Positions 45,379-46,432 of a stretch of 64,000 bases of DNA are shown here, in pieces (position 1 is the stretch's first letter; every line of letters begins with the position of its first letter). The notes under the pieces were generated by a model. That model did not search any database. It saw only the letters and a list, made by a program, of their open reading frames with translations, and was not told the origin of the DNA. The stretch spans positions 1 through 64,000 of the forward strand of contig JAJZJX010000005.1 of NCBI GenBank assembly GCA_021850985.1, in the 5' to 3' direction. The stretch is from a bacterium. Lineage in GTDB: Bacteria; SZUA-79; Acidulodesulfobacterales; Acidulodesulfobacteraceae. The position numbers and the translations under genes were made by a program.

Positions 45379-46350
45379 ATGCTTGAATACAACAAATATT
45401 CCTTTAGTCTTGCTTTTGAGAAAAAGGTGGCGTTTCGTTCCTTGCCGTCTTTTATATTCCGCAATAATATAGGATTCCAGTTAAGAAAAATTACCTGCGT
45501 TCTTAAAAATCAAGAATGTCAGAACTGCATCCTTAGAGTTTCCTGTATTTATTCCTCCGTGTTTGAAACGCCTATAGAAAAAAACAACGCTGTTTTGGGC
45601 GGCAGAAATAAAGCACCGCACCCGTATGCAGTATATGCGGACGCCGCCGTTGCCGGAACTGCCGTTGACGGACTTAATCTCGACATAGTATTAATAGGAA
45701 CGGGAGTAAAGTATTTTCCTTACATGCTACTTGCCATGTTTAATATGAGCAAATCTGGGATACTAAAAGAGCGCATCAAGTTTAACATAGATGATATAAT
45801 CTGCGGAGGCGTATCCATTATGGACAAGTCGGATTATTCCTGCAAGAACGTCAAGCCGGAAATCTGGAACATAAATAAGGATGATATAGACTGTCAGCTT
45901 GATGTTTATAATAATAGTTTGAACAGTTCAGGAGAAAATGGCATAAAAACCGTCAGGATTAATTTTTTAACGCCAGTCAGGCTCCAACACAAAGGCAGAT
46001 ATCTGTCTAATATAACGTATAAAGACCTATTATATGCTGCTGTTAGGAGAGTCGGCTTACTTAACGATTTTTTCGGCGACGGAGATATAGACGCTGCCGG
46101 CGGCGATTTTGTCGATTCGGCAACAGAGGGTAAAGAATTTGACGCAGATTTAAAATGGGTAGATTATTCGAGGTATTCCGCGAGGCAGAAACAGAGCATG
46201 AAAATGGGCGGCTTAGTCGGAACGGCAACGGTCAAGGGGCGGTTTTCCGAGGCGGAATTGTCCCTGCTTAATGCGGCGGAACTTTTCGGCATAGGTAAAA
46301 ACGTCAGCTTCGGTCTGGGACGGATAGGGGTGGAAGTAACAGAGGATTGA
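45379..46350 (+). CDS. cas6: CRISPR pre-crRNA endoribonuclease Cas6 (RAMP)
   Basis: C-terminal 'RYSARQKQSMKMGGLVGTATVKGRFSEAELSLLNAAELFGIGKNVSFGLGRIGVEV' glycine-rich Cas6 motif; CxxC segment 'CQNCILRVSC'. Confidence 0.9.
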   Translation: MLEYNKYSFSLAFEKKVAFRSLPSFIFRNNIGFQLRKITCVLKNQECQNCILRVSCIYSSVFETPIEKNNAVLGGRNKAPHPYAVYADAAVAGTAVDGLNLDIVLIGTGVKYFPYMLLAMFNMSKSGILKERIKFNIDDIICGGVSIMDKSDYSCKNVKPEIWNINKDDIDCQLDVYNNSLNSSGENGIKTVRINFLTPVRLQHKGRYLSNITYKDLLYAAVRRVGLLNDFFGDGDIDAAGGDFVDSATEGKEFDADLKWVDYSRYSARQKQSMKMGGLVGTATVKGRFSEAELSLLNAAELFGIGKNVSFGLGRIGVEVTED

Positions 46351-46360
46351 AAATAAAAAG
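46326..46360. repeat. 35-bp direct repeat copy 1 (AGGGGTGGAAGTAACAGAGGATTGAAAATAAAAAG), covering the 3' end of cas6
   Basis: Identical to 46398-46432; 37 unique bases between. Confidence 0.97.
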
Positions 46361-46397
46361 AATTTGAAAATCAACGCCTTCCGTTCTGACGAAGTCG

Positions 46398-46432
46398 AGG
46401 GGTGGAAGTAACAGAGGATTGAAAATAAAAAG
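46398..46432. repeat. 35-bp direct repeat copy 2
   Basis: Identical to 46326-46360. Confidence 0.97.

What the first reader, a model, noticed from the sequence alone, without database searches (positions are those of the whole stretch)
46326..46432. Apparent natural off-target spacer integration ('neo-CRISPR' unit) between cas6 and cmr1
Seen: a perfect, maximal 35-bp direct repeat (AGGGGTGGAAGTAACAGAGGATTGAAAATAAAAAG at 46326-46360 and 46398-46432) flanks exactly 37 unique bases (AATTTGAAAATCAACGCCTTCCGTTCTGACGAAGTCG). The local array has 35-bp repeats and 34-43-nt spacers, so the geometry is one CRISPR repeat/spacer unit, yet the duplicated sequence is the cas6 3' end and not the array repeat. 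Deleting one repeat plus the 37 bp gives ...cas6 TGA AAATAAAAAGGGGGACAA ATG-cmr1, a compact operon junction with a well-placed RBS, so the ancestral state is readable. A simple 72-bp tandem duplication would also duplicate the 37 bp, and it does not. Established: Cas1-Cas2 integrates a prespacer at staggered nicks one repeat apart and gap repair duplicates the intervening DNA; non-canonical integration outside arrays has been shown experimentally in E. coli. Inference: this is a fossil ectopic integration inside the system's own cas operon, which also inserts sequence between cas6 and cmr1.
Basis: partly seen in the sequence, partly recalled or inferred. Interest (0 to 1): 0.88.

Follow-up and report, generated by a model that had tools for sequence, protein, structure and literature searches.

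The report
Spacer integrated outside its CRISPR array
A bacterium's CRISPR memory-writing machinery appears to have pasted a 37-base piece of a plasmid-like parasite next to one of its own CRISPR genes instead of into the CRISPR array, leaving a readable trace of a mis-aimed immune-memory event.

Summary
In detail: a perfect, maximal 35-bp direct repeat flanks 37 unique bases after cas6. The local array has 35-bp repeats and 34-43-bp spacers, so the geometry is one repeat-spacer unit.

The decisive new evidence is where the 37 bp come from. On the reverse strand they encode (G)DFVRTEGVDFQI in frame over the whole insert. This is the consensus of a 173-aa family found in three of 29 related genomes, in five copies in one, on contigs carrying ParA/ParB, a TraG/TraD-like protein, ArdC, RecT, SSB and an integrase. 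The best nucleotide match is 31/37 (shuffles at most 24; random window 37-mers at most 27). At least five ordinary spacers of the same array match the same contigs, so the insert behaves as a spacer.

Best explanation: full-site Cas1-Cas2 integration at a non-array site, duplicating a repeat-length target. The genome's other Cas1-Cas2 (type IV-E locus, 36+30 arrays) does not fit.

Limits: no empty-site relative, exact protospacer or reads. The 'cmr1' is a 35-aa remnant in a decayed type III locus. The duplicated sequence has no hairpin and no repeat handle, so it is probably not a working crRNA gene. Natural cases are reported (Nivala et al. 2018, from memory): a new member of a known kind.

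The parts
45379..46350 (+). cas6 (323 aa), intact; its last 25 bases lie in the first copy of the duplicated target
   Evidence: PF10040 E 7.5e-15, PADLOC Cas6 E 6.8e-73
46326..46360 (+). 35-bp target-site duplication, copy 1 (cas6 3' end with stop codon)
   Evidence: identical and maximal direct repeat
46361..46397 (+). 37-bp inserted spacer-like segment; reverse strand encodes (G)DFVRTEGVDFQI of a mobile-element protein
   Evidence: 31/37 to G005:C108, per-genome E 3.9e-5; exact 12-residue peptide in family members
46398..46432 (+). 35-bp target-site duplication, copy 2 (non-coding duplicate of the cas6 tail)
46441..46548 (+). cmr1 remnant, first 35 codons only
   Evidence: 81% over 52 bp to cmr1 on G000:C63; short ORF MAFYINRFSGIERKTYEVEIITPMFLGGADTKKMG
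46641..46775 (+). card1 remnant (CARF N-terminus), effector gene lost
   Evidence: PF23400 CARF_Card1 E 2.2e-5
47401..48498 (+). cas1 (365 aa), proposed integrase; aligned Glu, His and Asp positions shared with Cas1 of solved structure
   Evidence: PF01867 E 3.5e-78; alignment to 8d3l
48508..48783 (+). cas2, first copy
   Evidence: PADLOC Cas2 E 1.4e-23
48812..49093 (+). cas2, second copy
   Evidence: PADLOC Cas2 E 9.7e-23
49340..50754 (+). CRISPR array, 20 identical 35-bp repeats, spacers 34-43 bp; several spacers match the same mobile elements as the 37-bp insert
52898..53006 (+). distal end of the array (one perfect and one degenerate repeat) cut off by about 2.1 kb of other DNA

Best explanation
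A Cas1-Cas2 complex, most likely the one encoded 1 kb downstream, captured a 37-bp prespacer from a conjugative-plasmid/ICE-like element. It joined the prespacer by two strand transfers staggered 35 bp apart across the cas6 3' end instead of at the leader-repeat junction. Gap filling duplicated the 35 bp, giving target(35)-spacer(37)-target(35). Shown: the geometry, the foreign origin of the insert, and the match of ordinary array spacers to the same elements. Inferred: the enzyme, the order of strand transfers, and the ancestral empty site. The unit is probably inert as a crRNA source, because the duplicated sequence has no hairpin and lacks the array repeat's 3' handle.
For: (1) Duplicated length 35 equals the array repeat, and insert length 37 lies at the centre of the spacer lengths. 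(2) The whole insert, end to end and in frame, is a piece of a mobile-element gene: 31/37 to G005:C108, shuffles at most 24, 393 random window 37-mers at most 27; peptide DFVRTEGVDFQI occurs exactly in homologues. (3) The gene is absent from this genome and found in 3 of 29 family genomes searched, five copies in G005, next to recT, ssb, helicase, parA/parB, traG/D, ardC and integrase genes. (4) Array spacers at 49737, 49810, 49881, 50529 and 52933 match those same contigs above all shuffles. (5) Homology stops at the insert's ends, so the boundaries are sharp. (6) The other Cas1-Cas2 locus in the genome has 36+30 units, not 35+37. (7) cas1 and cas2 are intact. (8) Such units are rare in about 369 kb of this genome.
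Against: No empty-site relative was found: the nearest cas6 relatives are followed by cas10 or card1. No exact protospacer is held. The target resembles the leader-repeat junction only weakly: 11/20 on the reverse strand, equalled by 1.8% of sites. The genome is an 81%-complete MAG and its reads are not available. The cas locus is otherwise decayed, so other repair events have acted there.
Confidence: 0.88

Rival explanations
1. Break repair: a staggered break was filled in, duplicating 35 bp, and a 37-bp fragment of invading DNA was captured as filler, without Cas1-Cas2.
For: The locus shows deletions (cmr1 and card1 remnants), so repair events have acted there. A filler insert would also give target-insert-target.
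Against: It does not explain why both lengths equal those of the local array, or why the insert comes from the element family that the array's spacers come from.
Confidence: 0.07
2. Assembly artefact or strain chimera in a metagenome-assembled genome.
For: The genome is a MAG in 84 contigs; reads are not available.
Against: An artefact would have to insert an end-to-end mobile-element fragment of spacer length between two perfect copies. The neighbouring array with 35-bp repeats is assembled with distinct spacers.
Confidence: 0.03
3. An ordinary tandem duplication of a 72-bp unit whose second 37-bp half later diverged or was deleted.
For: Tandem duplications are common; a gapped alignment of the insert with the upstream cas6 sequence shows scattered matches.
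Against: That alignment scores no better than the best shuffles, the 35-bp copies are identical, and the insert is a mobile-element fragment.
Confidence: 0.01
4. A genuine two-repeat mini-array of another CRISPR system that happens to overlap the cas6 end.
For: Repeat-spacer geometry.
Against: The repeat is cas6 coding sequence, folds to 0 kcal/mol, is not like the array repeat, and its only close matches in the genome are these two copies.
Confidence: 0.01

Closest known systems
Non-canonical (off-target) spacer integration / neo-CRISPR loci (Nivala, Shipman and Church 2018, Nat Microbiol, doi 10.1038/s41564-017-0097-z)
   Same: One spacer between two copies of a repeat-length host sequence outside an array. 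From memory that paper shows this in E. coli and proposes natural cases in Yersinia pestis and Sulfolobus islandicus; its text is not held, only citations of it.
   Different: Here the system is a decayed type III-linked locus in an uncultured Acididesulfobacter-like bacterium, the site is the system's own cas operon, and the insert traces to the element family matched by ordinary spacers of the same array.
Off-array integration by Streptococcus thermophilus Cas1-Cas2 in vitro (PMC6895254)
   Same: Integration at plasmid sites resembling the leader-repeat junction.
   Different: Those events were likely half-site products in vitro; here the full-site product is fixed in a genome.
Ectopic spacer acquisition inside arrays (PMC7999890; reviewed in PMC8047081)
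   Same: Spacer added away from the leader end.
   Different: Those insertions use a real array repeat; here the target is not a CRISPR repeat.

Membership tests
Natural off-target Cas1-Cas2 integration | Direct duplication of non-repeat host DNA of array-repeat length | tested here: met
   35 bp, identical and maximal; array repeat 35 bp
Natural off-target Cas1-Cas2 integration | Insert of spacer length | tested here: met
   37 bp; spacers 34-43 bp
Natural off-target Cas1-Cas2 integration | Insert derived from foreign DNA | tested here: met
   Fragment of a mobile-element gene, 31/37 and exact peptide; absent from own genome
Natural off-target Cas1-Cas2 integration | Cas1-Cas2 with matching unit size in the genome | tested here: met
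   cas1, cas2 x2 and 35+37-type array within 3 kb; the only other cas1 found belongs to a 36+30 array locus
Natural off-target Cas1-Cas2 integration | Single-copy empty site in a related genome | tested here: inconclusive
   No relative with a cas6-cmr1 junction found
Natural off-target Cas1-Cas2 integration | Target resembles the leader-repeat junction | tested here: inconclusive
   11/20 on the reverse strand, reached by 1.8% of sites; 4/20 on the forward strand
Functional CRISPR array | Repeat processed by Cas6, giving a crRNA with repeat-derived handle | not testable with these tools
   Sequence argues against it: no hairpin in the duplicated 35-mer, handle ATAAAAAG instead of ATTGCGAC; needs small-RNA data

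The most novel reading that the evidence does not exclude
The unit is not merely a fossil: read from the cas6 promoter it yields an antisense RNA against the mobile element's mRNA, or could seed a new array, so off-array integration into cas operons would be a route to new immune or regulatory units.
Probability: 0.05. Interest if true: 0.85.

Novelty: new member of a known kind. Interest (0 to 1): 0.66.

Why it matters
Off-target spacer integration is known from experiments and, from memory, a few proposed natural cases. This is a natural case in which target duplication, insert length and insert origin all fit, and ordinary spacers of the same array point to the same elements. It shows that misdirected integration by a wild Cas1-Cas2 persists in a natural genome, and it supplies a searchable signature (repeat-length duplication around a spacer-length mobile-element fragment) for measuring how often Cas1-Cas2 mutates host genomes and whether new arrays can arise this way.

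Tried and rejected
Insert as a dispersed repeat or MITE: one copy only in the genome. Insert as a diverged copy of upstream cas6: no better than the best shuffles. Protospacer in IMG/VR: one 21-bp exact match in a phage terminase region, but only 25/37 overall, judged chance; the reversed control pattern gave none. Phage and plasmid records: only chance-level hits. Exact protospacer in the family genomes with up to 3 mismatches: none. The type IV-E Cas1-Cas2 as the actor: its units are 36+30. A protospacer flank motif: flanks of the array-spacer matches are T-rich, but the insert's source is not exact, so no conclusion.

Full report
Observation. The two 35-bp copies at 46326-46360 and 46398-46432 are identical and maximal, with 37 bp between them. 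The array starting at 49340 has 20 identical 35-bp repeats plus two more beyond an interruption, and 34-43 bp spacers. So the unit has the size of one repeat plus one spacer of the local array. A scan of about 369 kb of this genome found no similar unit outside CRISPR arrays.

Setting. The closest cas6 is in Candidatus Acididesulfobacter diazotrophicus (72% in the best segment; 76%). cas6 is intact. What follows is not an intact operon: cmr1 stops after 35 codons, a card1 CARF fragment follows, then a ParE-type toxin pair, then cas1, cas2, cas2 and the array. In relatives cas6 is followed by cas10 (L033) or card1 (L005, L034), so no empty cas6-cmr1 site was found.

Origin of the 37 bp. They occur once in this genome. 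A search of relatives found a 31/36 match (E 3.9e-5 for that genome) in same-genus genome G005, contig C108, inside a 182-aa gene. On the reverse strand the insert reads (G)DFVRTEGVDFQI. The G005:C108 copy reads AFVRTEGVEFQI, and loci in G014 and another G005 contig read DFVRTEGVDFQI exactly. The protein database holds 30 homologues, several with the exact peptide. The nucleotide match is 31/37 against at most 24 for shuffles and at most 27 for 393 random window 37-mers. Homology covers the insert end to end and stops at its borders.

The source is a mobile element. The gene is absent from this genome and present in 3 of 29 family genomes searched, with five copies in G005. Its neighbours on C108 include SSB, a UvrD-like helicase, RecT, an exonuclease, ArdC, ParA, ParB, a TraG/TraD-like protein, a methyltransferase and a phage-type integrase. 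This is a conjugative-plasmid or ICE-like element; not every gene was scanned.

Link to the array. Ordinary spacers at 49737, 49810, 49881, 50529 and 52933 match the same contigs at 27-34 identical positions, above all their shuffles. A BLAST of the whole array finds the same contigs independently, plus G014:C2, which also carries a copy of the gene about 14 kb away. The inserted 37 bp thus come from the pool this array samples.

Mechanism. Established: Cas1-Cas2 joins a prespacer at two staggered positions one repeat apart and gap filling duplicates the repeat; off-array integration occurs in vitro at sites like the leader-repeat junction (PMC6895254) and in E. coli (Nivala et al. 2018, from memory). 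Inferred: the same happened here across the cas6 3' end. The local cas1 and cas2 are intact. The other Cas1-Cas2 in the genome sits in a type IV-E locus with 36-bp repeats and about 30-bp spacers, which does not fit 35+37. The target resembles the leader-repeat junction only modestly.

Consequence. Copy 1 keeps cas6 and its stop codon, and copy 2 keeps the start and ribosome-binding region of the cmr1 remnant, so no reading frame was broken. The duplicated 35-mer has no predicted hairpin and lacks the array repeat's terminal ATTGCGAC, so a working crRNA is unlikely. Transcribed with cas6 it would be antisense to the element's mRNA, an untested possibility.

Limits. There is no empty-site relative, no exact protospacer and no reads. 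A repair event with captured filler is the main rival, but it leaves both lengths and the shared source unexplained.

Noticed in passing
window 50755-52897: The CRISPR array is interrupted by about 2.1 kb of other DNA, including a nucleotidyltransferase-like gene pair on the minus strand (51500-52598); the last perfect repeat and a degenerate repeat lie beyond it.
   Followed up: partly
window 50312-50347 and 50457-50493: Two array spacers share 19 bp (TTTACGTGAGGTTTAGCAT), i.e. overlapping protospacers, with best matches 17 bp apart on G005:C108.
   Followed up: partly
window 46441-46775: The type III effector genes of this locus are reduced to N-terminal fragments of cmr1 and card1, while cas6, cas1, both cas2 genes and the array remain.
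   Followed up: partly
window 46821-47312: A ParE-type toxin gene with a small ribbon-helix-helix-like partner sits between the effector remnants and cas1.
   Followed up: no
window 48508-49093: Two adjacent, different cas2 genes.
   Followed up: no
L132 3074-11507 (contig C79 of the same genome): A type IV-E-like locus (fused Csf3-Csf1, Csf2, Cas6, DinG) with a type II-like Cas1 and Cas2 and two arrays with different 36-bp repeats and 66-67 bp period.
   Followed up: partly
L115 1750-2035 (contig C6 of the same genome): A short CRISPR-like array with about 30-bp repeats, some degenerate.
   Followed up: no
window 49375-49410: The leader-proximal spacer is very AT-rich and matches contig C19 of its own genome and several relatives at about 90%; possible self-match or promoter-like sequence.
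   Followed up: no
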